From NCBI GenBank assembly GCA_018902385.1, contig JABSSW010000015.1, positions 124,001 through 188,000 of the forward strand: a DNA stretch of 64,000 nt, read 5' to 3'. Both the position numbers and the translations under genes were made by a program. Shown here in pieces: positions 5,423 to 64,000 of the stretch (position 1 is its first letter; each line of letters starts with the position of its first letter). The notes beneath the pieces were generated by a model. That model saw nothing but the letters and a program-made list of their open reading frames with translations. It made no database searches and was not told the DNA's origin. The DNA comes from Physcia stellaris (Eukaryota > Ascomycota > Lecanoromycetes > Caliciales > Physciaceae).

Positions 5423-7533
5423 ATGGCGGCAAACTCTCGAGTGGATGATCTGTTTGAAGCAAAGAAAATGGTGCGGAAGTTCAGCTGGAAGACTTATTCA
5501 GAAAATCCAAACAACGACCTTGCAAAGTCATTGATAGCTGCAGAAGCTCTTGACAAGCAAGATGAGAAACAAGAGGTGATGCTGAATGAGCAGTGGAGGG
5601 AGCTTTTCAACCCCGCGACAAGCAAAGCATTCGGGTAAGCCAACAAACCGATTTCCAACTCCGAGAACTCACAGCTAACACACCGATCATAGTGGGAGCC
5701 GCGAGGAGATCCTGCTTGCCTCTCCAACAGACGAACTCGCAAAAGCATACAAGGCTTTCCAAAAATGTCTTCCCAAGGGACATGAAGCTCGCGTGGAAGA
5801 TGGTCCCCCTAGATTGAAGGCAGTCGTCCAAGCAGTAGCGACCGCCGACTCTACGTGGAAAAAGAATAGGGAAAGTACAAAAGCCGGAAGGATGAAGACA
5901 TTGTTTAGCAAGGTGGCTGGCAGTTTGAATAACCACAAAGACCTTTTTGCCATTTTACCCAGCGGCGACAAATACGTGTGCTTGTTCACGGGAAGCGTGT
6001 CGGCAATCGTCAAGGTAAGCAGCAAGGGACACTTCGCAACCAACCACCTGAGCTGACCACGAGAATAGGCTACCGTAAACCATGATAAGATTGCGGAGGG
6101 AGTCTCCAATGCCCTTGATGACCTCAGCGATGATATCCAGTATTGGCGGAAAACGCTCGAGGTCTACAGAGACGACATGCTCATGAGAGAGTATGTGGCT
6201 AAGCTCTACGTGGTGGTCTTCAAATTCCTGATCAATATAATGACGAAATGGTCCAAGTCTTCCGTGGCTCGATTTCTACGAAGCTTCGACAGCGCATTCT
6301 TCAAAGAGGAAATTGAGGAGAAGAAGACCGAGATAAGAGATCTGGAGCACAGGCTCGAAAGACAGGGCTCTCTGAGCATGAAGCATTCTGTGAAAGAGGC
6401 GCCTACGAAAGAGGACATCGCTCAAATCGTCTCTATTTCGCAAGCCAATTTCCAGATGGAGTTCCTCGTCAAGGCGGAACAATATCAACGAGAGCTTGGC
6501 CGCACATTGAAGAATACTCTTCAAGAGGAGTTTCTCAACACCCTTTGGCTCCAACGAGATGATTCGCTTCTTGGTGCGAGTTCACCCTTGGCAAGGTCTC
6601 GAGAAGCCTCGCCGATGCCAGAGGTCCACGATGGTGCTGAGAATACCTACCTAAAAAAGCAGATTCAGTTGACTGCGCGCCGACTCCTGCAACAAACTAC
6701 CCAGCAAGAGCATGTGCCAACGATGATTGCACAGTCCCAGGACCTAGATGTGAATATGGAGATTTTTGATAGAATACAGCAATGGAATGCAGCAAAAAGC
6801 TCTCAGTGCCTATGGATCCAGGGACCTTTCCAAGTAATGACACCATCTCGCTACACATTACTTAGCACCTACATTCTGGCAACAGCGCAAAGAGCCTCAA
6901 TACCTGCAATCTCCTACTTCTGCGAATCTGATACCGACATCGTCAAGATGCTTTACAGCTTGATCCTGCAATTAATTGAGGTGATTCCGAAAGATTTCCA
7001 TAGCGCGTTGGACTTTAGTACTCTGCGTTTTGAACAGCTCGATGCAACCAATAGTACGTGGCATGAAGCGATAGATCTCTTTAAGGATCTTCTATCAATC
7101 GGACCGTTTATATTGTTCGTCATCATCGATGGGCTTCAAGCGCTAGACAGAGGTTCCAACACGGCACAACTGAGCGATCTCGTTGAAGTACTTCATTCCC
7201 CCCCGGAAGGTTACGACGTGGATAGCTCACGGACCATCAAGGGTAAGTATTTCAGCAAGTTTCCTACTCGAAACTCCATTAGATTTATCAGCAAGGTTTC
7301 CTAGGTAGCAGGAGTGAACATGGCGAAAACAAAGCTTGCTTACCGCTAGGCACTTGCAATGGAAAAAGCTAACTCCTAATTCACCAATAGTCTTATTCAC
7401 TACCGATGGTTTCGTCGATGCATTAACGCCTTGTAAAGGTCATGAAAGGCTCGACACACTAGATTTTGCCGGCGAAGACGATGGCTCAGTTGAGACTGAC
7501 GCCGTAGAGGTCGGCTTACTCTTAGATATTTAG
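5423..7533 (+). CDS. STAND/NLR-like protein with N-terminal DUF7708-like domain and degenerate NTPase region (616 aa)
   Basis: Exons 5423-5634, 5693-6014, 6069-7242 and 7391-7533 join in frame to 1851 bases (616 aa). Residues about 60-270 are helical and charged and include YWRKTLEVYRDDMLMREYVAKL, here split as YWRKTLEVYRDD and MLMREYVAKL, resembling the DUF7708 region placed before NACHT or ankyrin parts in fungal signalling proteins. The stretch LWIQGPF (about 426) sits where a P-loop is expected but lacks the GxxxxGK(S/T) pattern. FVIIDGLQALD (about 528-538) looks like a Walker B strand. The protein stops soon after, with no WD40, ankyrin or TPR repeats, so it is either a truncated member or a compact regulator. 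The last intron (148 bp) is the least certain; its splice gives KVLFTTDGF, a good match to such proteins. Role in non-self recognition is family inference only. Confidence 0.7.
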
Positions 7534-8078: not shown

Positions 8079-8892
8079 CTAGAGCAAAGCAGCAAAGCCC
8101 AGGACTGCAGCACCGACTGCCATGGCAGCTCCAGTGGCCTGAGACCCGACACCGCCGGTGCTGTTTGACGAAGTTGGGGCGTTGGTAGCGCTTGGGCTGG
8201 TGGACTGGGGTCTACCTGTCGTAGTTGCTCCACTGGCATTTTTCGACGCTTGAATAGCAGCCACATAGGAATAGGCGGAGGAAGGAAGTGCTGTAACCCA
8301 GGCCGCAGCTGAAGGTACATTTCCAGAAGCAGTGATCGCCGCGGCGATGTCCGCCGGCACGTTTTTCGTTGCTATGCCGGACACGCTGGCAATGGCAGAT
8401 CGGAAAGCCGAGTTGTTGGCAAGAGATGAAGCTTCGACTAGGATATGTGATGGCTGAACAAAAAGTTAGCTTAAGCGGTTTCAGGGACTGATTTCATTTC
8501 TAGGAAGAGCTTACGTTCAGGGCAGAGGATGCAGCTGCGACTCCTGACTCAATTGCTGAACCGGCGGCTCCAGCTTTTGAGGATGCTGCTGCAACGCCCG
8601 ACTCAACTGCTGAACCCACGGCTCCAGCTTTTGAGGATGCTGCTGCAACGCCTGACTCAACTGCTGAACCAACATTTCCACCTGCTGAGGTCGCAGCTCC
8701 AGCTACGGACGTTACTGCTGAGCCAACGTTGCCTACTACCGATGAGGCATCTGCCACGACGGAACCTGCTGCTGTCTGACCAGCGCCTATTGCTTGTGAT
8801 GCGTCGCCAATGGCGGAGTCGACAAAGTTCTGGCCGTGGACTGCCGCTACGGCTGAGAACAAAGCTAGGACTATGGCGGAATCGCAAAGCAT
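8079..8892 (-). CDS. Secreted Ala/Ser/Gly-rich, GPI-anchor-type cell-wall protein with 18-residue repeats (250 aa)
   Basis: Exons 8892-8515 and 8453-8079 join in frame (753 bases, 250 aa); the 61-bp intron starts GTAAGC and ends TTCAG. The chosen ATG begins a clear signal peptide, MLCDSAIVLALFSAVAAVHG, which an upstream in-frame ATG at 9144 would bury. The mature N-terminal half is rich in Ala, Gly, Ser and Val and holds three near-identical 18-residue units of the form GSAVESGVAAASSKAGAV. A more complex segment (PSHILVEASSLANNSAF onward) follows, then a Ser/Thr-rich linker and a hydrophobic C-terminal tail after small residues, the classical layout of a GPI-anchored wall protein. It has almost no cysteine in the mature part, so it is not a CFEM protein. 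Function unknown; wall structure or surface adhesion is inference. Confidence 0.75.
8525..8686 (-). repeat. Three tandem 54-bp repeats inside the GPI-anchor-type gene
   Basis: Units begin near 8525, 8579 and 8633, each opening with GAGGATGC and containing GACTCAA(T/C)TGCTGAACC. Each encodes one 18-residue unit. The two central units are almost identical, suggesting recent expansion by slippage or unequal crossing-over. Confidence 0.85.
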
Positions 8893-10467
8893 CTTGACAG
8901 AGAAACAAAGGGTTTCAAGTACGTCTTGGTCGGCGGATTTTGGCTCCAAACAGACGGTTGAGCTGTCAGGGCAAATGTTTTGCTGCTTGTTTAGAAAGCC
9001 GGATTTCAAGATGGCAATTTCAGGGGTCAGTGGTTCGAAACTCTGAAAGGCAGTAGTAGTATTGACAGGAGTCGATCTCGTTGGTTCGAGCGAGGGCTTG
9101 GATAGTGTGAACTTTGATTCAAAGGGGACAACGTCTAAAGCCAAAGCGATGAGTGTTCAATTCAAAGGGCACGTTGGCTGGTAATATATAGAGGAGTGCG
9201 TAAGCACTGATGTGGACTACTTGGCTGTGCAACAGGAGTGCGTACTCAAGGATTTCATTACCGTTTCATTGGGCTCCTTCCTGCATCATTGTTGCGATCT
9301 CATGTCAGCTCAGCTGTGGATCTCCCTGACATTGAGCACAGTCAAGAAGTGTCAGCTTGATGACGAATCTAAAGGGCCAATAGATGCAGCAATCAGAAAC
9401 TTGGCATAACGTCCAACAGATGAACTCATGGGATCTTACACCGCACCTCCCCCGGGGATCACCTCGAAAGTTGATTTCATATTCCTAACGCAAGGCGGGG
9501 CAATCAGACTGTGACAACAGAGCCTCTGCAGGATTGCTTCAGCCTGCGGCGAGCTGTGCCGTCGGCCCTTGTATCGTACCCAAGTTTGGGCAAGGCCGGG
9601 GGCTACATATCAGACTCCGTTATATATCCCTTCATACCTTACTCAAGACTAAAGTTCCAGAGCTCAATTGATTTCACCAAAAAAGTCACTGCTGACCATC
9701 GCAATTCTCTGCATGCCATCAGATGAGAGGGTAAAAATAGGCTCGAATCCTCCCGTTTGACACCGAAACACACAGCCCCGACTGCCAAGGCTCTATCATC
9801 CCAACGTCTCAGCCTTGCTCTGGAGTAACCCATCTTACGAAACATCCAACGGTGGCAATAGGCATTTCACTAGCTCGCGTACCTGATCCTTGAGCCTCCC
9901 TGCCTGTTGCAAAGCGCGTTTGGGGTTGAAGGAGTAAAATCACGTGACCGATTACCGCAAATTCCTGGGCTGTCGTAGTCCAGTTGTCTGGCACCTCAGT
10001 TCTGCTTGCTCTATGGACATGGTGATATAGAATAGTTCAAAGCACTCTTAACTGTGCAAAATTATTAGTTCCTCAACCTCAGACTCGTAACACGAGAGTG
10101 TTGGGCTCACTGGACGTATAACCCTTCTTATGTGCCCGATACTCCATTCTACTGGTCTTTCTCGAAATGCTCCTACGCTCTCGTCTCAAATTGAGGCAAT
10201 CGAGTCTTCTCCAGCCCTGGAGGTGTCGATATTGTATTTCCGGCTAAGTAGTGTATTAGCTCAAGGCTTCATTCCGGCTAATGTCAGCATGAACATAGAG
10301 ATGTCAGAGTACAGAATCTCTCTAGGTCGACAATGAAAAATGTGAATTCCAGTATAATGTGCTTCTCGGCCCAGATTGCTGAAGCTTTTCGAATCAAAGA
10401 TGCAACATAAACCATACTCAACCAGGATCAACATCGCATTATTAGGAAGAACAACGATGTAACATTC
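8893..10467. other. 1.6-kb intergenic region, no gene supported
   Basis: A TATATA run near 9184-9189, about 290 bp upstream of the GPI-anchor-type start, could be its TATA box with a long 5' leader. The remaining ~1.3 kb contains only short open frames without recognisable domains, and no tRNA-like structure that I could fold by eye. Confidence 0.45.
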
Positions 10468-11479
10468 TTATCTGTTGCCAGCATTGACGATTCCGGAGGC
10501 CTCATTCTCCGCTCGATGCTTTGTGGTAAAGTCATAAATCGCATTGCTCGACCGGCACTGGTGCTCTATCTCCCATCCATCGACCTGGCTCGTCTTATCA
10601 CCCTCTTCAGCTTCCCGCGCCCACTCTATTGTTGTGTCTCCAGCACAGAGTATAGCTTGGCGAAGGTAATCAAAGCAGTGGGCCAGATGCGACAAGTCCG
10701 TATGGACACCGTGATCTCCAGAGTCGCTCTTTGCCTGCCCTGAAGAATCCTGGCCAAGGGACCTTCTGAGTTCGCTGACAACAGCGGAATAACCTAGGCG
10801 GATCATGCCCTGTTCAGGTCAGCTTTGACCGAATTCGATGCTGCAGGAGTCTCCACATACAAGACAATGAATCTGATGGTACATTGATATTGAATAGCGA
10901 TCGTGGGTCTCGTTGACGAAGATACCTGGTGGTACGCCATGCTTCTTCGCCTCGCTATTGGCTACTAGGATGAAGCCATGGCCAGCTTTCAACGATCAGC
11001 TACTTTGAGTCTTGATACGATGCTGATTCGATTCCTCGCCGTAATCGGCAGACTTACGCGGTAATAGGGAATCCCATGCTCGGTTCACTCTATCGCTTTC
11101 TATGTCCGCAAACGTCCTGTTCTTTCTCCACACCACAGTCTCCATAGGTACTGATTGTTTGTTGTCAGCATCACCGATTGGAATGCGGGTACAGATCACT
11201 GTAGGTCGAATAAATTATTGAAAATATGGATAACTAACTTTGGGGGATCAGTGCTTGCCGGATACTCAACAGTGACTGTTCCGGCTCATCTGGGCTTGCT
11301 AGTGACAAGGCTACAAGGGTTACGGTACATACAACCGTAAAAACACATGCAGCGAACACTGTCTTCCAGAATCTTTCGCTTCGCTCTTTGCAGGATATGA
11401 CAGGATCTTTAGCTGGACCCACCTTTTCCTCTTCATACTCTTCATCTTCTGGAAGTCTCTCATACTTGGAACCAGCCAT
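10468..11479 (-). CDS. UstYa-type DUF3328 membrane oxidase A (four exons, 282 aa)
   Basis: Exons 11479-11239, 11198-11058, 10985-10861 and 10809-10468 join in frame (849 bases). The layout is that of the UstYa/DUF3328 family: a short charged cytosolic N terminus, one transmembrane segment (about 37-60), the block AWDSLLPPGHGF, and two HxxHC motifs, HQIHC (about 164-168) and HLAHC (about 210-214) followed by FDYLRQ, a downstream Cys and HQCR. Both motifs are intact, so the protein should be active. UstYa-type proteins oxidatively cross-link or cyclise ribosomal peptides in the ustiloxin, asperipin and phomopsin pathways; other DUF3328 proteins serve other metabolites. It lies 573 bp beyond the stop of a candidate peptide precursor on the same strand. 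The first intron is only 40 bp, so that junction is less sure. Confidence 0.85.
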
Positions 11480-12051
11480 GATCGATATTTCCGAGTCTGA
11501 TGCTACAAATCAGTAAATCAAGTGTCTTACTCAGATGAACAAGAATAAGAGAGAAGATTGCAGCAATGTAGAGTTCCTATGTACCCGTGTGAGTTCTGCA
11601 CTGCATGCAACAGCCAGGCGACTCCACGCGCCAGGCCAAGAGAATATTTGCAAGTGACGGCTTTCTACATGGTGAGAAGAAGGCTTTTTGCCTTGAGAAG
11701 AGCCTAGGAAAAGTGGTCTGATTGTTTGGCAACGTTCGAGCTTAAGCGAACGCCACTGACGGATGATCAGACCATATCTCCTCTTGGCTTACGGAGGTGT
11801 GATTTTCCAGACGCTACTCCACGTAATCTTACAGACACCCGATATGAACTACCTGACTGTAGCCTAGTTGGAAAGCGCCACCGCTTAACGTGGAGCGTCA
11901 GTCCACGAGATGACAATCAAGCAAAGCAAATTCGTAAAGCGATTCACGACCCAACAATAAATTTGTTTCATCCAAGGAACTTCGGTCAAGACCGAACCGT
12001 CCATGCCGCATCACTTCCCTAGCAGCATTCCGAGAGTGTTGTGCTGCAGTG
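11480..12051. other. Intergenic region between oxidase A and the precursor gene
   Basis: It contains the upstream region of oxidase A and the 3' flank of the precursor, both on the minus strand. The plus-strand open frame near 11726-12022 has no recognisable feature and I do not call it. Confidence 0.45.
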
Positions 12052-12385
12052 CTACTTATGGTACGCCTCGATCATGATGTCCGGTTCCTTGCCTCGCTTA
12101 TGGTATGCCTCCACCATGTTATCCGAATCCCGTTTGTGGTACGCTTCGATCATAATGTCGGGCTCACTCTTCGCTGAGTCACGTCTGTGGTACGCTTCAA
12201 TCATGATATCCGGTTCTTTTTGGGCTGCGCTGCGGTCATGCAGGTCAAAGACCGGTGCTGTGCGTCATTTGTCAGCTATATTCCAGGTGAACTTGATTAT
12301 GAGGGTTTTCACCCATCGGAGCGGCCATTGACGGAAGTATCAAGCCTAGGACTGGTAGGATAGTTAGGAGCACTGAAGAATGCAT
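12052..12385 (-). CDS. Candidate UstY-type RiPP precursor: signal peptide plus four core repeats with dibasic cleavage sites (92 aa)
   Basis: Exons 12385-12313 and 12257-12052 join in frame (279 bases). The 55-bp intron starts GTGAAA, ends GCACAG and has a GCTGAC branch site about 15 bases before its end. Exon 1 encodes a signal peptide (MHSSVLLTILPVLGLILPS, then MAAP). Exon 2 encodes a short spacer and four segments: EPDIMIEAYH-RR, EPDIMIEAYH-KR, DSDNMVEAYH-KR and a terminal EPDIMIEAYH-K at the stop codon. A secreted precursor with repeated cores separated by Kex2-type dibasic sites, beside DUF3328 oxidases, is the architecture of ustiloxin, asperipin and phomopsin precursors. The core has a conserved Tyr and Ile/Val, compatible with the Tyr-to-aliphatic ether known from ustiloxin; that chemistry is inference. 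A TATA box lies ~150 bp upstream. I do not recognise the core. Bioactivity of the product is unknown. Confidence 0.8.
12055..12216 (-). repeat. Four core-peptide repeats of the RiPP precursor
   Basis: Repeats occupy 12216-12181, 12165-12130, 12129-12094 and 12087-12055, with spacers DSAKS and GK. Repeats 1 and 2 differ at five third-codon positions in the first ten codons with no amino-acid change there, so the peptide rather than the DNA is conserved. Confidence 0.85.
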
Positions 12386-12533
12386 GGCGGAAAGTTTTAA
12401 GCGATGTTCGAAGTCGATTGCCAGGAGGAGGAAGCAATTGCTAGACTGATACAACGGTGATTGCGATGTGAAAACTGGCGTCAGAAGGCTTTGACTGGAA
12501 AGACCTGTGGATGAAGACGACGTTCCCCGATCC

Positions 12534-12542
12534 TTATATAAA
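12534..12542 (-). promoter_or_regulatory. TATA box of the precursor gene
   Basis: On the minus strand the sequence reads TCTTTATATAAGG here, about 150 bp upstream of the precursor ATG at 12385, a normal distance for a strong fungal promoter with a short leader. Confidence 0.5.
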
Positions 12543-12963
12543 GATTAGTATCTCCCCTCTTGGTGCTATTTCACTGCCTGATCTACATTTCCAGTTCCTT
12601 GGTAATGAAACAGGGCCCACCGCTAAGCTTAGAAACCGCCAACCGCTGTTCCTACGGTCAATTGCTAATGGATGACCTGTGGCATAGACGAGCCCAAAGG
12701 ACGGTGTCTTGGCAGGCATCCTCAGCTCAGAGCTAACGTATTTGCTCCAATGATCGCCTTCCAACACGAAAGATGTATGGTCTGATAAAGACGGCATACA
12801 CTAGCCGGAACGATATGAGAGGCTGTCTCCACGTCATTTACCTCGGCCCAAAAGACTTGTCTTGCACCACGGAGGATATTTTGAAGGCCTAGCTTGGGGC
12901 ATAGCTTACGTCGACCATGAAATATCACCACCGTGGAGAAAGGTGGTCATTGGGGATAAATCA

Positions 12964-12994
12964 CCTCATGGTAAGCTGATGAGCTTAGATGAGG
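12964..12994. promoter_or_regulatory. 31-bp nested dyad in the shared promoter (candidate regulator site)
   Basis: Two nested inverted pairs are visible: CCTCAT (12964-12969) with ATGAGG (12989-12994), and TAAGCT (12972-12977) with AGCTTA (12982-12987), around a 4-base centre. It lies ~80 bp upstream of the oxidase B ATG. A dimeric transcription factor could bind it; no regulator gene is seen in the window. Confidence 0.4.
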
Positions 12995-13074
12995 CTTTTT
13001 GTGGAGACACAGACACCAGTTGCTTTTAAAACTTTTGCTTAGCTCTACAGTCCTGGAGCATCAAGCGTTCGAAC

Positions 13075-14215
13075 ATGATGCTAGCCAGCCCGTCACCCTC
13101 AGAACCCACTGACCAAGAAGAATCGCTTCTTGAGAAGCCTTACCAACCACCGGTATCAAAGCTTCGGCCATTGAGAACGTGGATCAAATTTGCTGTTCTG
13201 CAATTTATCCTCATACTCTGCTACACAGCGAGTGTCTATATCATCTGTCGGAATTTTCGACAATCTTCCGAATTCCAGAGTAGATTGTACTGTTCGTGTC
13301 TTCTCCTATTCCTACAAAGAGCAACTTTTCTTGACAGCCCGTGACTGACGGGATCTTTAAGCTCCTGCTGCCAGCGCCATCGGATATGAAACCCAAACAT
13401 TTGCTCGAGAGCTTAATGCCTCCAGCATCTACGTAGCATCACCAGCACCTGAAGTCGACGAGGCTTGGGAACAATTGTACAAAAGTAAGTCCTAAGTTCC
13501 ACCCAATGGCCCTTTCTTGCCCCTTCTCAAAGCCATATAAGCTATGCGGATGAGTCTGTGTGGTTGGGATGTGGTGTGCTAACCGGGTCTCAGATGCCGA
13601 GATCAGAGTCTCGGCTGAAGACCTTCGCTCAATCAATCGTACGTCTGTTGCCTTTTCGGATGGATCGGGGTACCTGGCAACGTTGGACGTAATGCATGAG
13701 CTACACTGTGTGGTTCGTTCCCTGTTTCCACTGCATCAACTGTGTCTGGTAAGCAACAATGGTCTGATGCAGTCAACCTTCAGAACCACATCCGGAAGTA
13801 CATCTACCGCGCCCACTACCCTCAAAACTTTGGCTTTGATGACGATGAGATACACATCGGTAGGCTACCTTTTCCCTTTTCTCTCCTCGCGCTCTTCGAT
13901 ACACCGGCTTTGTTTGTCTTGTTCCCTTAAGCTGATATGCACACAGCACATTGCCTCGATACCCTCCGTCAAATTGTCATGTGTAGAGGTGACACTGGTC
14001 TCCTCACCTATGAGTGGCACTCCAAATACCGCAAACCATGGCCGAAATTCGATGTAACACATCAATGCCGGAATTGGGATAATATTGCGAGGTGGGCGGA
14101 AGATCATAGTGTGGATACGAGGGGAGAGATTCTGGTCCATCCTGATTTAGGTACGTTGTTTCTTGCTATCCGAAGAAAGGACTTGGAGGAGGTGGGGTGG
14201 ATAAGGAATCGGTAA
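13075..14215 (+). CDS. UstYa-type DUF3328 membrane oxidase B (five exons, 272 aa)
   Basis: Exons 13075-13291, 13362-13484, 13594-13712, 13784-13859 and 13932-14215 join in frame (819 bases). Residues about 41-63 form the single membrane segment. The lumenal part has LYSPAASAIGYETQTF after the first junction, EVDEAWEQLY, the first HxxHC as HELHC (148-152), RKYIYRAHYP and the second HxxHC as HTAHC (182-186) followed by LDTLRQ, a downstream Cys and HQCR. The last exon start was chosen (TTAAG acceptor) because it restores the full second HxxHC; a later CACAG acceptor would drop it. Two ATGs are adjacent, so 271 aa is equally possible. The family is the same as oxidase A, and the gene is divergent from the precursor. 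Two UstY proteins act together on ustiloxin, so this pair is suggestive. Confidence 0.85.
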
Positions 14216-14483: not shown

Positions 14484-14882
14484 TTACCCCTGGACTTCGT
14501 ACCTATTCACCCTCGCCACATAGTCAAGATCAAAATCTTGGCTGCTCGTTTTCATGAACCAGCCAATACTATCACAACGCCATCCGTTCGTCTTGATGCA
14601 ATTATCCTTCCACCTAGCTTTCTGTTGTGGACTAAATGGTGGTTCCATTTTATCGAGCATATCATCGATGTCGTCCGCGATTCTCCCGCGTGCTGATTCC
14701 TGTGCTGCAGCGAGGGTGCGGGTGACTTCTGTCACCTGAAGCTGCTTTTTGAAGTTCTCTTCAGTCTTGGTACGGGAGACTGTCATAAGGAAAACAAGTT
14801 GCGGTGTATTGGGTTGCGGTGTATTGGGTTGCGGTGTATTGGGTTGCGGTGTATTGGGTGTGGAAGAGGATGTGGAAGACAT
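14484..14882 (-). CDS. Array paralog 1: small cytosolic-type protein of unknown family (132 aa)
   Basis: Uninterrupted frame from ATG at 14882. The N terminus is a Ser/Thr/Pro tail with four NTPQP units encoded by a 15-bp minisatellite. The rest shares its order of motifs with three neighbouring minus-strand genes: an aliphatic/Thr strand (LVFLMTVSRT), a helical Ala/Gln-rich stretch, then WKDNCIKTNGWR (91-102), WFMKTSSQ (108-115) and a final strand DYVARV. No signal peptide or membrane segment is visible. I do not recognise the family; the shared pattern in four adjacent genes is the main evidence that it is real. Confidence 0.65.
   Translation of the reverse strand: MSSTSSSTPNTPQPNTPQPNTPQPNTPQLVFLMTVSRTKTEENFKKQLQVTEVTRTLAAAQESARGRIADDIDDMLDKMEPPFSPQQKARWKDNCIKTNGWRCDSIGWFMKTSSQDFDLDYVARVNRYEVQG
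14798..14857 (-). repeat. 15-bp coding minisatellite, four copies
   Basis: Four perfect copies of GTTGCGGTGTATTGG (plus strand) encode the NTPQP repeats at the N terminus of array paralog 1. Perfect identity implies recent expansion. Confidence 0.9.
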
Positions 14883-15193
14883 GATGATTGTGAAACCTGA
14901 TGGCTGATATCGGATGGAAATTTCCAGGAAAGATGTGAAGATGTGGAGATGGTATGCTCTTTTGTATGCAATCCCATGTTACGTTTGCCATCGCATTGTT
15001 TGGACCGTCAACTCCCTATGGCCATGCGCAACTAGCCGTATCAGAAGGCTTCTTCTACATTCCGAGCTTCCAAACATTTCTTCCCTTACAGAAAGAAGGT
15101 CTTTTCAAAAAAACCCTCAAGAGCATACACCCTTCGCCCTTCCTCCCTTAATGCCCAACCCTCTCCCTCACCTCCTCCCCTCTCCCCAAACGC
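14883..15193. other. Intergenic region between array paralogs 1 and 2
   Basis: No coding sequence of its own is supported; it contains the promoter of paralog 1 and a pyrimidine-rich 3' flank of paralog 2. Confidence 0.4.
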
Positions 15194-15523
15194 CTACCGC
15201 CCAACCCGAACTGGTTCGCACGCCTCCACCCTCACCACAAAAACAACATCGCTCCCCTGGCTGCTTATCTTCTTGAACCAAGCACTACCATCAGGCCGCC
15301 AAGCGTCCGTCTGTATGCAATTCTCCTTCCATGCCGCTCTCTGCTCTGCACCAAGCAGTCTGCTCAGCTGTCGATGTATGCTCTCCGCGATCTGTGTATC
15401 GGCGGCTTGCATTGCTGCGGCTTCGGTGGGGTAGAGATATGTCTCCCCGGCCGGCTTTAAAACATTTTGGTGGGCGATTGTGAGGGTGAAAGTACTGGGC
15501 GTTGAGTTAGGTGGGGAGGACAT
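15194..15523 (-). CDS. Array paralog 2 (109 aa)
   Basis: The frame stays open upstream to 15712, but the ATG at 15523 gives an N terminus (MSSPPNSTPS) like that of paralog 1. It is the clearest copy of the family: TFTLTIAHQN strand, Ala-rich helix, WKENCIQTDAWR (65-76), WFKKISSQG (82-90) and VVFVVRV (93-99). Nine of twelve positions of the first Trp/Cys block are shared with paralog 1. There are no introns and no targeting signal. Family and function are unknown to me. Confidence 0.65.
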   Translation of the reverse strand: MSSPPNSTPSTFTLTIAHQNVLKPAGETYLYPTEAAAMQAADTQIAESIHRQLSRLLGAEQRAAWKENCIQTDAWRPDGSAWFKKISSQGSDVVFVVRVEACEPVRVGR

Positions 15524-15814
15524 GGTGGGTGCGAGATCTTGATGAGGATGAGAAGAGGTTGAGAGGGGGGGAAGAGGTGGGCGTTTTATATTATTCCAGC
15601 CGACATTTGCTTTTCTCCTTGTTTGATTTGTTAAATACGTGCCTACGCGGTCACGCGCCAGCACCAAACGAGCGGCTTCTTCTCCATCCCGACCTTCCAA
15701 ACCCATTACCAATAATCAGCAGACACTCACTCCCCTTCCCGTCCTATCAAGCATACAAACTTAACCCTCGCTCTTCCTCTCTCCTCCCCAAAACCCCTCC
15801 CAGTAATAAAACAC

Positions 15815-16342
15815 CTATCGCCCACCCTGCCACATCCCCTTCCCCTCCCCCGCCCTCCCAACCGGAACCCACGCCGTCACCTGCACCATAAACTCAACCT
15901 CATGCCCCGCATGACTCAACCTCCTCACCCACGCCTCTCCCTCCCCTTCCCCCATCCCCTCTCCCTCATTCCCCCCTCCACCCACCCCCTCATCCCTATC
16001 CCGACAATCAAGCCTCCACCCCGCAGCCCTATTCCGCTTCGCAGCAGGCGTGATACCAGGGTAGCATTCCCCGAGATAGACATCTAGCGCGTGGTACAGG
16101 GTCGTGAGCGCGGTTTGGAAGGCGGGCTCCCAGGCTGTGAAGACGGAGATTATTTGCGTTGAGGATTGGGGCGGGAGGGGCGGGGAGTCGGGAGGGTGCT
16201 GGTTTCGTGGTAGGTTAGGATGAAGACGCGGGTTGGGGTGGAGGGGGGTGCGGTTGGGAGGGGTTTGTGGAGGTTGGGTGTGGGTGGTTGAGTTGGGGGT
16301 GGGGTCCGGGCTGGGGCTGAGGGGCGTGGGGGCGGGCGTCAT
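15815..16342 (-). CDS. Array paralog 3, with long proline tail and acidic Gly/Glu insertion (175 aa)
   Basis: ATG at 16342 was chosen by comparison with its neighbours (MTPAPTPLSP); the frame is open further upstream. Residues 1-60 are Pro/Thr/Asn-rich. The family core follows: QIISVFTAWE strand, a helix, GWRLDCRDRD (109-117, matching the WKxNC block), a Gly/Glu-rich insertion (about 118-136) that breaks the core, and WVRRLSHAGHEVEFMVQV (138-155). The core is more diverged than in paralogs 1 and 2, while its position and strand fit a tandem array. Confidence 0.55.
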   Translation of the reverse strand: MTPAPTPLSPSPDPTPNSTTHTQPPQTPPNRTPLHPNPRLHPNLPRNQHPPDSPPLPPQSSTQIISVFTAWEPAFQTALTTLYHALDVYLGECYPGITPAAKRNRAAGWRLDCRDRDEGVGGGGNEGEGMGEGEGEAWVRRLSHAGHEVEFMVQVTAWVPVGRAGEGKGMWQGGR

Positions 16343-16853
16343 GGTTGTTGGTAGTTGTGGTGGGTGGTGGGTTTTCTTTGGGTGGGATTTTTGATGTTGT
16401 GGTTGGGCTTGTTGTTTGTTTTGTTTGATGGAATGATATCTTGGTGGTGGAGATGGAGAGAGAGAGAGACCTTTCGTGCTTTTGTAGACCTTGTTTTGCA
16501 AGGTATTTATAGAAGCGTCATGGTTATGAGTCCCTTCTTTGAGCCAGATGACTGTTGTATAGTTATCGCTATCTCTTCTTTTCGACAAAGCTCATCGTGA
16601 GTGCTGTCAGATAACTCTACGAAGGTTCCCTGACTCGATTGTAAACCTCCTGTTCGCTTTCAGGACAAAGATGACTTATGGCTAAGACTGGAGATGCAGT
16701 CATCGTAACATCGCAACCATGTCGATGAGTCTACCTGGTGAACGACCTGTCAGAATAAGATCGGCAAGCATGCTTTCCGGGAGAAACCTCACGACTCCAG
16801 CTTTCTATCCATTTCAGCAGTATTTCTCGACATCGCTCCTAGGATAGTCAATA
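16343..16853. other. Intergenic region between array paralogs 3 and 4
   Basis: G/T-rich next to paralog 3 and containing a GA repeat (about 16450-16468). It includes the upstream region of paralog 3. No gene supported. Confidence 0.4.
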
Positions 16854-55411: not shown

Positions 55412-58365
55412 TATGTTTGACATTCGATCTTCTACAAAATCGTTTGTAACATTTTTTAAATAATCATAATTCACACACTTTACAACAGAAACATTGCATT
55501 CGATTATATGATTTTATCGAATTTCGATTCTGATTTTCTGTCATTGTGCTAATTATTTTTTTTTCTGGTGTCCATTCTCGGAAAGTGAACAGCTAGCAGA
55601 GATTTTCGCCGAACATCTTCTAGTCATATTTTGAGACTGCAAAATCGAGCTTCTTTATTACACAACAATCAGGCTACGAACAGTCTATCTTTTCGAACGG
55701 CGAAGTTCTTTATACTATTACTATTGAACGGCGAAGTTTCAACTTCATACGACTTATAATTGACGAGTAGTTTTAGTCAGCACGTTGTACTTTCTGTTTT
55801 CGATTTCGAATATATTCGATTTGTTAATTTCGCAATATTTTTCGAAACAACATTTTTTGCACGTTTGCAAACAAAACATCAAACATATTTTTATATCGAT
55901 TGTTTGAATTCTCATTACGAACAGTGAAAAAAAACGATTACGAATAATTGCTGTTATTGAATAAAATATTCGTTTTGAAACAATTCAATCAAAACATTCG
56001 TTTATTAGCGATTTCGATAATCGTGCGAACGTTATTATCATTTTTGAAATACGCAATTATTCGAAACTTGATCGTGAATATTTCGTTCATGATACAATTT
56101 TAGCGAACAGAACGTGTATTTTCGTCGAAAAATCAATTGATTCGTGATTATTTCAAAAATCGATTTGTATTCGTCGCAATGATTTCGACGTTTTGTTTAA
56201 GAATTCGATTTCGATAATCTGTTTATTCGTTTCAACATCGTGTTTCAGAATTCGATTTCGATAGTTTGTTCATTCATTTGATTGAAATCGTTTTTCGTTT
56301 TTGTATCAATCAGTATCATCATCATGAAGTTTGTTTTATTCAAATACGATATGATAAACAAAACACGCAATATCAAACAAAATAACGAATTTATTCGAAA
56401 ATATTACGAACGTATCAATGATTCGTTTATTGTTGAGTTTGATTACAGAAATAAAACGAAAAATGTTACGTTTTTTGAAAAAGAGTTAATATGATTGACT
56501 TTTGTCATCGAAAAATGAATCAGAAAAATCAAAAACACAAAATTTTTCAATTATTTTGCAAACAAATTCGTTAAAAATTTATTCGATACATACATCATTG
56601 CAAAACGAAAAATGCTGAAAAAAAAACGAAAATTTCGTCAAAAAAAAGAACGAAAATTTCAAAATAAATATCAAATAATTTTGTAACAATTTCAGAATTT
56701 CGTTGATCACAATGTTTTTTACGAATTTTCGTTCATTCTGAAAAAATTGTCATGCGATTTGTCGAAAATCAATGCAAATGACATGAATTTTAATGATATC
56801 GAATCAATGAACGAAATTTTTGTTTTTGAATTTGACAAATGAATTGTCGTCATTGCAAAAAAAAAATTTTTGATTTTATTAATACATTCGCAAATTTTTC
56901 GAAAAATTCGTTCGCATTCGATATCGAGACTATTGAAACAATTGTCGAATAATTCATTTGATTGAAATCGTTGTTACATTGTTGATATGAAGATTTTGAA
57001 TCAAAAAATTTTTGCTTTGATTGTCATGTATGACGCATTTTCGAAAAATTCGTTCGCATTATTTTTCGAAAATTTGAAAATTTCGATCGCAATGAATATG
57101 TCGTTTTTCAAACATTTTATGAACATAAATGATTTTGTTATTGAAATTTTTGATTTTGATATTGCAATGAATGCATTTTTGAAAAATTCGTTAATACAAC
57201 ATATCGAAAATTCAAAAACATTGAAAAAAATTCGATCGATATTCTTTACGAACTGTTTGCATTTTTTGTTTTCGATTTCAACATTGATATCGATTTCGAA
57301 ATTTATACGATCGATTCAGAAATCACATGCTCGAATATTCAAATTTCGATTACATTTTTTAGACGAAAAATGCAATTATTATCGTTTCGTGATTTTGCAT
57401 TGCGTAACATTTCATTTGATTGAAATCGTTCAAATATTAATTCTATTGATTCGAACATATTTTCGATTTCTATTTGTATTTCTGTTTCGACTGTCAATGT
57501 CATCATTTCGAATGTCATTTCTGAAATCATGAATGTTCACTTCTATAAGAAAAAACAATTGTTTTGTTCGACGATGTATTTTTCTGTCTCGATTACTATC
57601 GAATGTATTATTGTTGTGAATACGAATTTCTATGAAAAAACAATTTTGTTTTTTTGTTGATATTGATGTTATTTGCATTGTTGTTGTTGTTGAAAATATC
57701 GATGCGTTCATCTTGATCGTTAATTTGATCAATATTACGAAAAATTCTGTCTAAATGTCATTTCTGAATTTTATTGAATACGTGATTTCGAAATCGAAAC
57801 ATAAAAAACTGTCGAAAATGAAAATAAAAATCGTATAAAAATCGAAACATATCGATTCATGAAATAAAATCGTTGTTGAAATAATTGCAAAATTTTCATA
57901 CAAAATGATTTTGTCTTTTTGACATTTCGACAACGATTAAAATTTTCGAAATAATTGCAAAATGCGCATGCGAAATGATTATTTTCTCGAACACATCAAC
58001 AATCGTTAATACATTTGAAATATTTGTTGTTTTCGCATACGAAATAATTTTGTTTTTCGACAATATGCAAAATTCAAAATCGTGCAAATTCGAAAATTTC
58101 GAATCGACATACGATTTCGACATTTCGAATTTGCAAAACAATCAATTGATATCATGCAATTGCGACGAAAATAAAATTTTATTTTTTTGAATTTTCGATA
58201 TTTTTCGATATTTGTTTTACGAATTTTTTGTTTTGCGACGCACAACGTGATTTATTTGATTTGATTTTCGATGTCAATATTGTTGTGCGTAAAAAAATAC
58301 ATGTCGCATGTTTGAAAATAATTTAACGAAATGACGTTGAAAACAGCGTTTTGTTATGAGAAAAA

Positions 58366-58433
58366 ATTGTTGAAAAGAAAAAACAAAAAATTGATAATTG
58401 ATTCATTAAACAAATTGCACGTAATCAGTTTTA
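58366..58433 (+). repeat. Mutated copy of the 68-bp repeat
   Basis: Direct-orientation copy inside AT-rich block 2. About 11 of the ~14 RIP-type changes are at CpT/ApG, one each at CpC, CpG and CpA. CpA in TCATT and GCACG is unchanged. Confidence 0.8.
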
Positions 58434-58519
58434 TTAAACTGATCGTCGAATCAAACTTCAAGCTCGAATGCGTCGATTTGATTCGATTTGCAAATTGAAA
58501 ATTTCGATTTGAATTTGAA

Positions 58520-58572
58520 TTTGAATCAAACTCAAATTTTTTAACGTGTCAAAAATTTGAGTTTGATTCAAA
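58520..58572. repeat. Perfect 22-bp inverted repeat with 9-bp spacer
   Basis: TTTGAATCAAACTCAAATTT (58520-58539, plus two T) is complementary to 58551-58572. It sits in a run of TTTGAAT/ATTCAAA words. The arms keep CpT, unusual for this block. Confidence 0.75.
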
Positions 58573-59521
58573 TTTCAAATCAAAATGTCAAAATTTGATT
58601 TGAATTTGAATCAAATTTCAAATTTCGATGTCGAATTTGATTTGATTCGTCAAAAATTTTAATTTCATGACGTATTACATTATTTCGCGATATTTCTGAT
58701 ATTAATTATAAATGCTTTTTTTCAAAATTTTCGAATTTTTTTTTTTTGCATTATTGTAAGAAATAAAAATTCAGAATTTTCGAAAATGCGATTCGCATTT
58801 CGTCAAGCAATTCGATTATCGAAATTCGAATGACTTCGAAAAAAATCAATTTCAATCATTTTACAACTCGATCAACGATAAACTCAACAAGTTCATATTG
58901 TCAATCGAAATCGATCGAATTCGTACGATTGAATAGATAAAATGTGAATAAAAAACAATTGCAAAACGTAATCTGTTTTGTAACGATTAATAAATCAATA
59001 TATTACATTTCAAATTATACATTTCTGATGTCAATAATTCATTAAATTATATTATTTCTAATACGAATTTTACATTCTAATCGCTATCATATTTCAGAAT
59101 GATGTCACTCGTGTATATTTAACAAAATACAATTTTGTTGTCTCGCATACATCATGTCGAATTCTGATAATGATTTGCTTTTTGAATTTGTCGAAAATGC
59201 TGACGTATTTTTTTGATTGACTTATTACAAGCAACAAATCGAAAAAAATCATAAAAAAAAAATCAGATTGCAAATTCGAAATATCGAACGTTCGAAATTT
59301 GTAATTTCTATTTCATTTGCAATTTTTATTTCATTTACTTTTGTTTTTGATTTTGTTTGAAAATTTTTCGTCATGAAAATCATCGAAACGACATCGAATC
59401 AATATAAAAAAAAAAAAATTACAAAAAGTGAAAAAATATTGCAAACAAATGAAAAATCAATTCACGCAAAACAACGTGAATCACATAATTCAATTTTCGA
59501 ATTTAATCAAAATCGCATACG

Positions 59522-62500
59522 TTGATATTTATCTTAAATCAAATAACAATGCGAACAAACTTTGAAACGCAAAAATCGATTTTCATTCAAACAAACAATA
59601 TATCTGAAACGAATTTAAAACTTTTTGAAAAACGACATCGAACGAGCAATCACGTTGCAACAGAACTTTTTGAAAAAATATCGCAAACACAAACAAAATC
59701 ACAATCAATCGATTAAAAATTACAATGTCGAACGAATAAATATGTTTGTTGAATTGAAATTGAATTCAAATTCACGAAAACAATGAAATTCAATGATTTT
59801 CGTGACGAATTACGTTTGAAATTTCGTTGCATGTTTTTTAAAAAAAAAATTTTCACAAAAACGAAATTGCTTGAACGATTCAAACGTATGAAAAACGTTC
59901 AAATTCTGAAAAAAAAACTCAAAAATTTCAAAAAACGTAAAATTTCGTTCGATATTGACAGTTCTGAAAACGAAAACGAAAAATTCAAAATTGCGAAATT
60001 CAAAAATAAAAAAATCAAAAATATTAAAATCAATTCGAATCACGAATCAGTCAAGTCGAAAAATACTCGAATGTATCGTTGATTCGTCAGCGAATTCAAG
60101 AAAATTCAAAACAAAAATAATTGTATAAATTGTGACAAATCAAATCATCAAATCGAAATTTGTACAAACAAAAAAAACAAAATCATTTTCGCTGATCAAA
60201 TTTTGAACAATCAAAAAACTAGTCGATTTGATGATTTTCGTTCAAATCGTTAAAAAAAAAAATTTTCGAATTTCGATTTCGATACGTCGTTTTTTTCAGA
60301 CATGAGCAAAAATGATGTTAACAAAAAAAAAAAAAAAACGACGCAAAAAATTTAAAAAATTCGTGATTCGTAAATGCGTCAAAATCAAAATTAACATACA
60401 AAACGAAAACAAAATCTGAATCGAATCGAAAACAATATTCGATACAAAAACGAAAATCAATTTGATAAATCATGTCTATGCGAAAAAACTGAATTTTTGT
60501 CGTTTTGAAATTTTAAATTGTGATGCAATAACAATTGACAATTATCGTTTGAAAACGTATGACGTTTATTTCGTACAATTCGAAATGTCAAACGTCAAGA
60601 AAATTAATCGCTTTTTCGAAAAATCGTTTTTGATCGTGAATCTGAATTGAAATTTAACGTTAAACATGTTTTGAATACAACTTTCGAAAATCAAAATGAA
60701 TTGAAACGACGACAATATCAAAATTTGACGTTGCAAAAAAAAACATTTCATTTTTATCATATGTCGTATCGAAAACATCGAATCAAAACAATTGATCGAA
60801 AACGTCATCGATAACGAAATCGAAACGTATTTCATGTTCGTACGAATGTATATTGACAAACAATTCGACATGCATGAAATGACATGTTTCAAAACGAATT
60901 CAAATAAAATTTGTTTTGATTGAAATGAAAAAAAAATTCGATGTCAAAATCATTCTTTTCGATATTTTGAAAACGTATGAAAAATTCGATAACGAAAATA
61001 AAATTTACGAATTATCGAATCATGATTCAAACGATCATGTTATTGATTTAAAAAAAACAAAAAATCGTCGCATGAATCAATTTACTTTTTATTCGAAAAT
61101 AAATTTCGAATATTGCGTGTTTACATCGAAAAACATTTAATTAACGATTTCATTCGATTTTCACAATTTTTTGCAAAAACGTTCATTTTGTTCGTCAAAA
61201 AAAAAACGATAATTTACGATTATGCGTGAATTACAAAAATTTTAATGTTTTCACGATAAAAAATAAATATTTTCTATCGTTAATCGATGAAAATTTAAAT
61301 AAATTCAACAAAGTCGTCAAATATATTAATATCGATTTAATTGCTGTTTATTATCGATTGCGTATCAAGCATGAAAACGAATGAAAAACAGTTTTTCGTA
61401 TTCGATATGATTATTTCGAATATAACGTATTTTTTTTCGATTTCATTAACGTTTCGACGACGTTTCAAAATTTCATCAATAAAATTTTAGCGATTCGTTT
61501 CGATATTAACGTCATTGTATATTTGAATGATATAATAATTTATTCGATGAACGTCGAAATTCATGTCGACGATATCAAATGAATTTTTGATCGTTTAAAA
61601 AAATAAATTATATATTGTTTTGAAAATGCAAATGATTCGTTGACGAAATAAATTTTCTTGAATTCGTCGTTTTTTCAAGAAATGAAAATGCAAAACAAAA
61701 AATCGAAATTATTCAACAATGATCAATATTTCGCAACGTTTTCGACATTATGCAATTTCTCGATATCGTTAATTTTTATCGACGATTCATTAAACATTTC
61801 AGTAAAATTGCTGAATTTTTGATCGTTATGTTAAAAAATCACAAAAATTTCGAAAAATATTCGTAAACGCAAACGAAATCAAAATCGAAATCGCAACAAA
61901 TCATCGAACATTCACATCTTTTTGATCAACGAAACATTGAAAATTTTCAAACGATTTCGCAAAACATTTATCGAAACATCAATTTTACGTCATTTCGATT
62001 TCGAACGTGTTATTCGAGTCGAAATCGACGCATTCGACAAAATTTTAAAAATCATTTTATGTCAACAAAACGACGAAAATCATTGACATTTTGTTGCGTA
62101 CTTTTCGCGCAAGTTGATTTCGACCGAATGTCATTACGAAATTCATGACAAAAAATTGTTGATTATTGTGATTTCGTTCAAACAATGAAAACATTATCTC
62201 GAAAACGCAAAAAACAGATTTTTGTTTTTATTGATCATCGCAATCTGAAACAATTTATGATCACAATTAACTGTCGTCACGTCAAATTCGATTAATTCAA
62301 AAATTGAATCGATATAATTTTTTAATCGATTATCGTTCTCGATAACAAAAATTTTGTTGACGAATTTTCAAAACGATTTGATTACATGACGATTATTGAA
62401 AAAAACGTCGAAAACAATCGTCAAATTTTGAAACAATTGCAAAAAGTCATTGATCGCAAACTCGAAACGTTTCGAAAAATGCGAATAAATGCGATCAAAA

Positions 62501-64000
62501 TCATGAATGCGACGCATGTCATGAAACGATTCATGAATGCGATACATAACATGAAACGTCGATCGCATTTAAATGATTCAACAATCGAATCAATCAACGT
62601 TGTTTCGAAAACATTTAATTCAAAAAATTCAAAACGAAATCGAATTTCAATTAACGTTGTTTCGAAAACATTCGATTCAAAAACTCAAAAATTCGAAACA
62701 TTCGATTGAACAAAAGTCAAACGTGACATTCATAAAATGAAAAATTTTTGTGTTAAAATCAACGATTGTATTTGAGCGCAATGCATAAAGTTCGAATACA
62801 AATTGCTTTACGAAAAAAAACGACATATAACGACGAGTCAACATTTTCATTGTTGAATTTCGTTCGTGATTTGATCGTTAAAAATCAATTCGTTTTTGAA
62901 ATATGTCGAGAATTAATTATTTCGAAAGCAGAAACAGACAATTGACAACACAAAAATGAACTTTTGTATTACGACGATGTCGTTTACATTCCAAAAAATT
63001 TGCGTGAAAACGTTATTCGTGCACATCACGATAATTCGCTCGTTGATCACTTTGACATCGAACGAACGTTGAAATTGATACGTCGAAAATACTATTGATC
63101 GAATCAAAATTCTATCGAAATTCTTGAAATGCGACAACAAATCAAAAAACATTGCGAAACATGCGCCGTTTGCAAACGAAACAAAGCTGCACGACACAAA
63201 TCATACGACGAATTTTTTTTTTTTTCGATTTCTGAATTTAAATGAATTGATTTTTTCATGAATTTCGTGACAAAACTTTTTTTCAAATAAAACATGAAAT
63301 GAAACGATTTACGATTCGATTTTAGTGATTGTGAATCGTTTAACGAAAATGATTCATTACATATCAATAATTAAAACGATTTTCGCAAAAATTTGATCGA
63401 AATTTTATTTCGCGAAATCATTCGATTTCACGATTTTTTTCGTCAATCGTCATCGATAAAAATTTCATTTTCACGTTCAAATACAACGATGCATTGTGTT
63501 ACGTTTTGAAAATCAAACGTAAATTGTCAATCGTTTTCATTTTCAAATCGATTTAACAAATCGAACGAATGAACAACGTCATGAAACAATTTTTTCGCGT
63601 TTTTGTCAACTTCGAGCAAAATGACTGAATAAAATTGTTATTCATGATCGAGTTCGTTTACAACAACAACAAACATGCATTCACAAATATTTTTCGTTCG
63701 AAATTATGTTTGAATATTCATTTCGCATGTTTTTTGAAAAAACATGAGACAAAAAAAATAAATTCAAATTCGCAAAGAAACACGTTGAACATTTAGTTGA
63801 ATTATTTCGAATATTGAAAAACAATTTATTCATGACACAACAACAGCAAACGATGTATAAAAACGAACGCACGAAATCAATGCCATACAACGTCGAAAAT
63901 TACGTGAATTTGAACGATAAAAACATCAAAACTAAACGAAACAAAAAACTGAAATGAAAATTTTTGACTCATTTCAAATTTTAAAAACTATAAAAATCAA
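59522..64000 (+). mobile_element. Ty3/Gypsy retrotransposon (Gypsy-2), less decayed, truncated by window end
   Basis: Gag remnants (59522-60082) are Lys-rich. The zinc knuckle at 60122-60163 is intact: CINCDKSNHQIEIC. Protease-region sequence is at 60462-60650 (INHVYAKKL, then DNYRLKTYDVYFVQ). Reverse transcriptase carries YLNDIIIYS (61520-61546, Asp to Asn). RNase H reads ILCQQNDENHWHFVAYFSRK near 62055-62114. The integrase zinc-binding part has HH...H near 63022-63050 and CETCAVC near 63155-63175. Frames are broken by stops and shifts, but long parts stay readable. No 3' LTR is inside the window and I could not delimit a 5' LTR. Confidence 0.8.

What the first reader, a model, noticed from the sequence alone, without database searches (positions are those of the whole stretch)
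10468..14215. Compact UstY-type RiPP locus with an unrecognised core peptide
Seen: a small secreted precursor with four EPDIMIEAYH-type segments, three of them followed by RR or KR, lies between two spliced DUF3328 genes that each keep both HxxHC motifs. Known: this combination defines fungal UstY-dependent RiPPs (ustiloxins, asperipins, phomopsins). Inferred: Kex2 cleavage, then oxidative Tyr-Ile/Val linkage of a core such as MIEAYH. The core matches none of the UstY-family cores I know. No P450, tyrosinase, S41 peptidase or methyltransferase is visible, so the product may be small or other genes lie outside the window.
Basis: partly seen in the sequence, partly recalled or inferred. Interest (0 to 1): 0.93.

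Follow-up and report, generated by a model that had tools for sequence, protein, structure and literature searches.

The report
Small fungal modified-peptide gene cluster
This fungal genome stretch carries a small, well-supported set of three genes, a secreted repeat peptide and two copper-oxidase-like enzymes, of a kind already known from many fungi, whose peptide sequence is new to us but whose product and role are unknown.

Summary
At 10468-14215 two spliced UstYa/DUF3328 genes (PF11807, E 1.5e-25 and 3.6e-57; each with two HxxHC motifs) flank a 92-aa secreted-looking precursor with four D-x-M-[I/V]-E-A-Y-H segments, followed by RR, KR, KR and K-stop. The repeats are old and constrained (pS 0.98, pN 0.06). 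In the 244 kb held, mostly picked for UstYa hits, three more repeat precursors turned up, each within 2.8 kb of a UstYa hit. One of these loci (C34, 255 kb) repeats the layout with related enzymes and a different core; another (C28) has a Y-x-I type repeat, with the genome's only S41 peptidase hit and a tyrosinase hit nearby. So this is a compact ust-RiPS/dikaritin-type locus in the broad, DUF3328-defined sense: a new member of a known kind. A published survey counts 1758 Kex2-repeat precursors with DUF3328 neighbours and 2560 precursors without any homologue (PMC7329392), so an unmatched core is expected. The Tyr-Ile cross-link is plausible but unproven. Side observation, perhaps more unusual: the AT-rich DNA next door has lost every CpC, and nearly every CpT, but keeps CpA and CpG.

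The parts
12052..12385 (-). Precursor gene (Kex2-processed repeat protein), 92 aa: signal-like N-terminus, then four D-x-M-[I/V]-E-A-Y-H segments followed by RR, KR, KR and K-stop
12258..12312 (-). 55-nt phase-1 intron of the precursor, directly after the signal-peptide exon
   Evidence: one-intron models of the same layout for sister precursors L016 and L024; for L018 only by reading its upstream DNA
12052..12264 (-). Repeat-bearing open frame with all four core segments
10468..11479 (-). UstYa-A (PF11807, DUF3328), 275 aa, introns 11238-11199, 11057-10965, 10860-10810; hydrophobic segment around residues 37-64; motifs HQIHC and HLAHC
   Evidence: model; E 1.5e-25, 90.8 bits (cut-off 25); hydropathy
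13075..14215 (+). UstYa-B (PF11807, DUF3328), 267 aa, introns 13292-13361 (or 13296-13374), 13485-13593, 13713-13783, 13860-13946; hydrophobic segment around residues 36-59; motifs HELHC and HIAHC
   Evidence: scanned protein equals the spliced DNA; E 3.6e-57, 194.2 bits (cut-off 25)
12386..13074 (.). About 690-bp shared upstream region of the head-to-head precursor and UstYa-B genes
   Evidence: coordinates; same head-to-head order at C34:255-256 kb

Best explanation
A minimal ustiloxin-type (ust-RiPS; dikaritin in the broad, DUF3328-defined sense) locus. The precursor enters the secretory pathway by its signal peptide (inferred). Kex2-type protease cuts after KR/RR and a Kex1-type carboxypeptidase trims the basic ends, leaving peptides that end in ...EAYH; the last copy, which ends in a single Lys, fits this trimming (inferred; Kex1 role recalled). 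Two membrane-anchored binuclear-copper UstYa oxidases, A and B, act on the peptide in the secretory lumen, most likely at the invariant Tyr and the neighbouring Ile/Val or His, giving an oxidised and probably cyclised short peptide (inferred). Shown here: the genes, the domains, the motifs, the repeats under purifying selection, and a paralogous module with related enzymes.
For: PF11807 hits far above cut-off, both HxxHC pairs present; this motif holds two coppers in CctR (PMC12435403, passages). Four repeats with dibasic sites, pS 0.98 against pN 0.06. A second module at C34:255-257 kb: its plus-strand UstYa groups with B (support 0.99), its minus-strand one joins L024 (0.80) and this pair joins A (0.78); precursor and B-type gene are head to head at both. 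By (my grouping of 20 exon hits) there are 11 UstYa places; 4 of 11 carry a repeat precursor, while the 70 kb of held stretches without a UstYa hit carry none. One P_proprotein hit in the genome (that this marks a Kex2-type protease is recalled). The UstY homologue AprY is essential for asperipin-2a, from a four-gene cluster with no tyrosinase or P450 listed (PMC6514808, passages), so a small gene set is enough in principle.
Against: No transcript, peptide or metabolite data. No comparison with other fungi was possible, so conservation between species is untested. Ile-x-x-Tyr order differs from the Tyr-x-Ile of the classic cores. No tyrosinase, methyltransferase, S41 peptidase or transporter was found nearby. 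The link of A to the other A-type proteins is weakly supported (0.78; 31% identity to L017, and L022, with no detected precursor, is as close to A as L024, both 43%). 7 of 11 UstYa places showed no precursor with this detector.
Confidence: 0.78

Rival explanations
1. The precursor releases plain linear secreted peptides (pheromone- or hormone-like) and the UstYa genes beside it serve something else.
For: 78% (6120 of 7878) of surveyed Kex2-repeat proteins have no DUF3328 neighbour, and the mating factors among them are linear (PMC7329392, passages).
Against: Here the precursor lies between two UstYa genes; the four precursors detected in the held 244 kb all lie near UstYa hits, though most of that sequence was picked for UstYa; Tyr is in every repeat, and in the survey DUF3328-linked repeats have Tyr more often (65.6% against 38.2%).
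Confidence: 0.1
2. The UstYa pair modifies the peptide without cross-linking it: hydroxylation, dehydrogenation or halogenation of Ile, Met, Glu or His.
For: Family members do such reactions (PMC12435403, PMC10880069, passages). The Ile-x-x-Tyr order does not match the classic Y-x-I substrate. Some DUF3328-linked repeat types carry di-His instead of Tyr (PMC7329392).
Against: [quoted passage not shown]
Confidence: 0.25
3. The locus is a remnant of a larger dikaritin cluster that lost its other genes at the edge of the AT-rich isochore.
For: The same genome holds a fuller-looking cluster at C28 with tyrosinase and S41 peptidase hits; AT-rich DNA starts about 4 kb downstream of UstYa-B.
Against: All three genes have open frames and the repeats are under purifying selection; the paralogous C34 locus has the same precursor-plus-pair layout.
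Confidence: 0.15

Closest known systems
ust-RiPS / dikaritins (ustiloxin, phomopsin; DUF3328-defined)
   Same: Signal-like N-terminus, tandem core segments with KR/RR sites, adjacent DUF3328 oxidases with two HxxHC motifs, Tyr in every repeat.
   Different: No tyrosinase, methyltransferase, S41 peptidase or transporter found; Ile/Val three positions before Tyr instead of the Y-x-I order; the core ends in His.
asperipin-2a locus (four genes; PMC6514808, passages)
   Same: Small cluster in which the UstYa-family enzyme is the ring-forming oxidase.
   Different: Two UstYa genes here, one there; different core; no transporter or reductase gene was seen here among the scanned frames.
Epichloecyclins (GigA; PMC6514808, passages)
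   Same: Signal sequence followed by four repeats with KR sites; oxidised Tyr proposed there.
   Different: Relation not tested: no fungal protein collection was open to search.
CctR (DUF3328 copper hydroxylase; PMC12435403, passages)
   Same: Same family and HxxHC(x)nHxxHC motif, N-terminal membrane segment.
   Different: CctR hydroxylates a non-ribosomal peptide; A and B sit beside a ribosomal precursor.

Membership tests
UstYa / DUF3328 (PF11807), genes A and B | Match to the family profile above its cut-off | tested here: met
   90.8 and 194.2 bits, cut-off 25
UstYa / DUF3328 (PF11807), genes A and B | Two HxxHC motifs (copper centre) | tested here: met
   A: HQIHC, HLAHC; B: HELHC, HIAHC; copper binding itself was not tested
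Kex2-processed repeat protein (KEP) | Tandem similar segments each followed by a dibasic site | tested here: met
   three of four copies are followed by RR or KR, the fourth ends in a single Lys before the stop
Kex2-processed repeat protein (KEP) | N-terminal signal peptide | tested here: inconclusive
   Hydrophobic N-terminus; 70 of 20,000 shuffles are as hydrophobic; no signal-peptide program was available
Dikaritin, broad definition (DUF3328 as class-defining enzyme, as cited in PMC12048977, passages) | Repeat precursor with DUF3328 protein gene(s) close by | tested here: met
   about 570 bp to A and 690 bp to B
Dikaritin, original five-gene definition (Ding et al., as cited in PMC12048977, passages) | Tyrosinase, methyltransferase and transporter or peptidase in the cluster | tested here: not met
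   No such Pfam family at E 1e-4 or better among the frames scanned in the window and 20 kb to its left (selections told in Tried and rejected; frames under about 75-80 aa not scanned); nearest tyrosinase hit on the contig 394 kb away, the only S41 hit on another contig (genes spliced into short exons can be missed)
Ustiloxin/phomopsin-type core (Y-x-I) | Tyr followed two positions later by Ile in each repeat | tested here: not met
   Repeats read D-x-M-[I/V]-E-A-Y-H
Dikaritin | Oxidised or cyclic peptide product | not testable with these tools
   needs metabolite data

The most novel reading that the evidence does not exclude
A two-oxidase-only module (A-type plus B-type UstYa with a head-to-head precursor), present twice in this genome with different cores, makes a ring that is not the classic Tyr-x-Ile ether, for example Tyr to the Ile/Val three positions before it, or a link through the C-terminal His.
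Probability: 0.25. Interest if true: 0.5.

Novelty: new member of a known kind. Interest (0 to 1): 0.32.

Why it matters
Fungal UstYa oxidases are a recently defined class of copper enzymes (PMC12435403). This locus offers a short, clearly bounded substrate, a pair of enzymes with no other modifying gene found nearby, and a paralogous module in the same genome for comparison. It does not change what is known of the class.

Tried and rejected
Protein database search with the precursor: the shared database was switched off, so homologues in other fungi could not be sought. NCBIfam: nothing for the precursor. PDB sequences: no relative of UstYa-B (best E 0.67). Promoter motif: a 14-nt element recurs at 86% and 79% identity between the genes (family D4); such short families are often chance, so no claim is made. 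Structure prediction was not tried: the proteins are spliced models, which by the tool's description do not count as the window's own letters. The weak Pfam hit of the precursor (Phage_NinH, E 0.061) was rejected as chance. Literature on CpC/CpT-type mutation: three searches and passages of three papers; I saw no report of CpC loss with CpA kept, but this is a limited search.
Full report
Observation. The finding is in the sequence at the stated coordinates. The window lies in a 44-Mb assembly of 147 contigs, at C15:124001-188000. On the minus strand an ATG at 12385 opens a short exon coding for a hydrophobic N-terminus (MHSSVLLTILPVLGLILPSMAAPM), followed by a 55-nt intron (12312-12258) and an exon with four repeats that ends at 12052. 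The 92-residue product reads ...KEPDIMIEAYH-RR-DSAKSEPDIMIEAYH-KR-DSDNMVEAYH-KR-GKEPDIMIEAYH-K-stop. Its N-terminus is more hydrophobic than in all but 70 of 20,000 shuffles of the same protein; no signal-peptide program was available. UstYa-A (minus, 11479-10468, 275 aa) and UstYa-B (plus, 13075-14215, 267 aa) were modelled from GT-AG introns and match PF11807 at E 1.5e-25 and 3.6e-57, cut-off 25 bits. Each has two HxxHC motifs and one strongly hydrophobic segment near its N-terminus. In one search the third intron of gene B was tried with acceptor 13772 and gave a shifted frame or lost the first motif; the scanned model uses 13713-13783, and one search confirms that it is the spliced DNA. 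The first intron of gene B stays open between 13292-13361 and 13296-13374; both give an open frame.

Is it more than chance? A detector for three or more similar 8-mers directly before KR/RR was run on all 3377 open frames of 40 aa or more in 19 held stretches (244 kb); 4 passed, and 0 of 67,540 residue-shuffled frames did. The four repeats differ almost only by synonymous changes: summed over pairs pS 0.98 and pN 0.06 on 8 aligned codons; the three EPDIMIEAYH copies differ at 7 third codon positions and at no first or second position; 0 of 100,000 simulations with the same number of random changes had as few amino-acid changes. So the repeats look old and the peptide held by selection. The number of synonymous sites is small (about 3.7 per pair).

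Sister loci in the same genome. PF11807 gives 20 exon-level hits, which I group into 11 places. The 4 repeat precursors found lie within 2.8 kb of a UstYa hit: the window; C28 (L024:6629-6988, eight VEDY[F/Y]I[S/A]VD units); C34 near 255 kb (L016:7981-8349, eight [AF]IAY[PS]D[SNF]Y units); C34 near 104.7 kb (L018:8077-8370, three identical units with a Y-x-I stretch). This is not a survey of the genome: 12 of the 19 stretches (the window and L015-L025) hold UstYa hits and most were picked for them; the 70 kb without such hits gave none. Seven of the 11 UstYa places showed no precursor with this detector, which needs three dibasic sites, so 4 of 11 is a lower bound. A signal-peptide exon, then an intron, then the repeat exon recur: one-intron models for L024 and L016; for L018 no model passed the script's filters, and the layout is my reading of its upstream DNA. 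Repeat selection is alike in L024 (pS 0.72, pN 0.036) and L016 (0.90, 0.086) and uninformative in L018, whose units do not differ at all over 11 codons. A tree of the motif regions of 10 UstYa proteins groups UstYa-B with the protein beside the L016 precursor (support 0.99); L017 and L024 pair at 0.80 and UstYa-A joins them at 0.78. L025 entered with its second motif region only; L023a was left out for want of the second motif in the searched range, and L015, L018 and L019 were not included. L016/L017 thus looks like a second module with a B-type and an A-type enzyme, with precursor and B-type gene head to head as in the window. The support for A is modest.

Surroundings. Pfam scans at E 1e-4 found no P450, tyrosinase, methyltransferase, S41 peptidase, transporter or transcription factor among 59 frames to the left of the window, 67 in its left part and 55 in its right part; nor did the 10 proteins at E 0.1. 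The selections are told under Tried and rejected; frames under about 75-80 aa were not scanned. By six-frame search the nearest tyrosinase hit on this contig is 394 kb away, and the single S41 hit of the genome is at C28:152984-153193. The same searches do pick up a fuller-looking cluster at C28: tyrosinase (142.8-143.6 kb), S41 peptidase (153 kb), UstYa (155-156 kb) and a Y-x-I type precursor (157 kb), so the absence here carries some weight. One P_proprotein hit is at C45 (its meaning as a Kex2-type protease is recalled).

Mechanism. Shown: genes, domains, motifs, repeats, selection, paralogous module. From the literature: the DUF3328 protein CctR is a membrane-associated, dimeric, binuclear copper enzyme that needs dioxygen, and its HxxHC(x)nHxxHC motif is essential (PMC12435403, passages); UstYa with UstYb and a tyrosinase are needed for the first ustiloxin intermediate, while the UstY homologue AprY is essential for asperipin-2a and proposed to close its rings (PMC6514808, passages). 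Inferred: secretion, Kex2 and Kex1-type processing to peptides ending in ...EAYH, and oxidation by A and B. Invariant D, M, E, A, Y and H in the four copies make Tyr and His the obvious targets.

Known or new. The survey PMC7329392 (abstract, section 6 part 1, and passages seen) counts 7878 repeat precursors in 1345 of 1461 strains, 1758 with DUF3328 neighbours (on average 1.7 such genes each), and 2560 precursors without any homologue. The lichen paper PMC12048977 (passages) states that the original dikaritin definition asked for five gene types and that DUF3328 was later suggested as class-defining. The present locus meets the broad definition and fails the original one. The core is absent from the full-text library searched, which does not show that it is absent from databases. 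Verdict: new member of a known kind, interest 0.32.

Side observation. The isochore at 18.5-44.8 kb (GC 23%) contains 0 CpC and 0 GpG in 26.3 kb, with 44 CpT and 62 ApG, while CpG is 4.45 times and CpA 1.21 times expectation. In the held sequence 50 of 54 1-kb windows with GC under 0.35 have CpC under 0.2 of expectation, against 0 of 11 with intermediate GC and 0 of 179 with GC of at least 0.42. An rDNA copy in the same assembly (CpC 0.05, CpT 0.45 of expectation) shows the direction: at conserved consensus positions C changed to T at 17 of 19 CpC, 12 of 27 CpT, 0 of 18 CpA and 0 of 24 CpG; over all compared positions, less reliable because the family consensus stands in for the ancestor, 79 of 116, 46 of 74, 9 of 71 and 18 of 92 (6 of 8 printed LSU rows and both 5.8S rows). 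RIP prefers CpA in most fungi (PMC2621366, passages); CpT has been seen beside it there, and as the dominant form in an alignment-based analysis (PMC7882544, passage). Three DNA-methylase loci are present. The loss of CpC with CpA kept deserves its own study.

Noticed in passing
window 18500-44800 and 56000-64000; L013; low-GC parts of L009, L010, L014, L016: AT-rich isochores almost without CpC (0 CpC and 0 GpG in 18.5-44.8 kb) and poor in CpT, but with 2.8-4.5-fold excess of CpG and CpA at 1.15-1.27 of expectation; an rDNA copy shows C-to-T at CpC (17/19) and CpT (12/27) but not at CpA (0/18) or CpG (0/24) of conserved positions. A RIP-like process that spares the usual CpA target.
   Followed up: partly
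L013 (C41:45899-46052): The one 5.8S match reported in the assembly is this heavily mutated rDNA copy (39 of 2644 candidates were scored); no intact copy was seen.
   Followed up: partly
C28:142824-157488 (L024): A fuller-looking dikaritin-type cluster: tyrosinase hits, the genome's only S41 peptidase hit, UstYa and a repeat precursor with EDY[F/Y]I units.
   Followed up: partly
C34:254981-257346 (L016, L017): A paralogous precursor plus two-UstYa module with an AIAYPDSY-type repeat; most of L016 is AT-rich.
   Followed up: partly
C34:104577-104870 (L018:8077-8370): A repeat precursor with three units identical in DNA over 11 codons, 2.7 kb from a UstYa hit; recent duplication or homogenisation.
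   Followed up: partly
C44:303947-313838 (L023): A UstYa hit, a second frame pair with both HxxHC motifs nearby, and a tyrosinase hit 7-9 kb on, without a detected repeat precursor.
   Followed up: no
window 14484-16591, minus strand: Three neighbouring ORFs that look like tandem relatives by eye (similar C-terminal halves); no Pfam match above cut-off for the first two.
   Followed up: no
window 6069-7301, plus strand: ORF with DUF7708 and NPHP3_N matches, like the start of a fungal STAND/NLR-type protein.
   Followed up: no
window 8079-9156, minus strand: Secreted-looking Ala/Ser-rich frames with internal repeats, no Pfam match.
   Followed up: no
window 11774-11787, 12550-12563, 12958-12971: A 14-nt element recurs upstream of the three genes (100, 86 and 79% identity); may be chance.
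   Followed up: no
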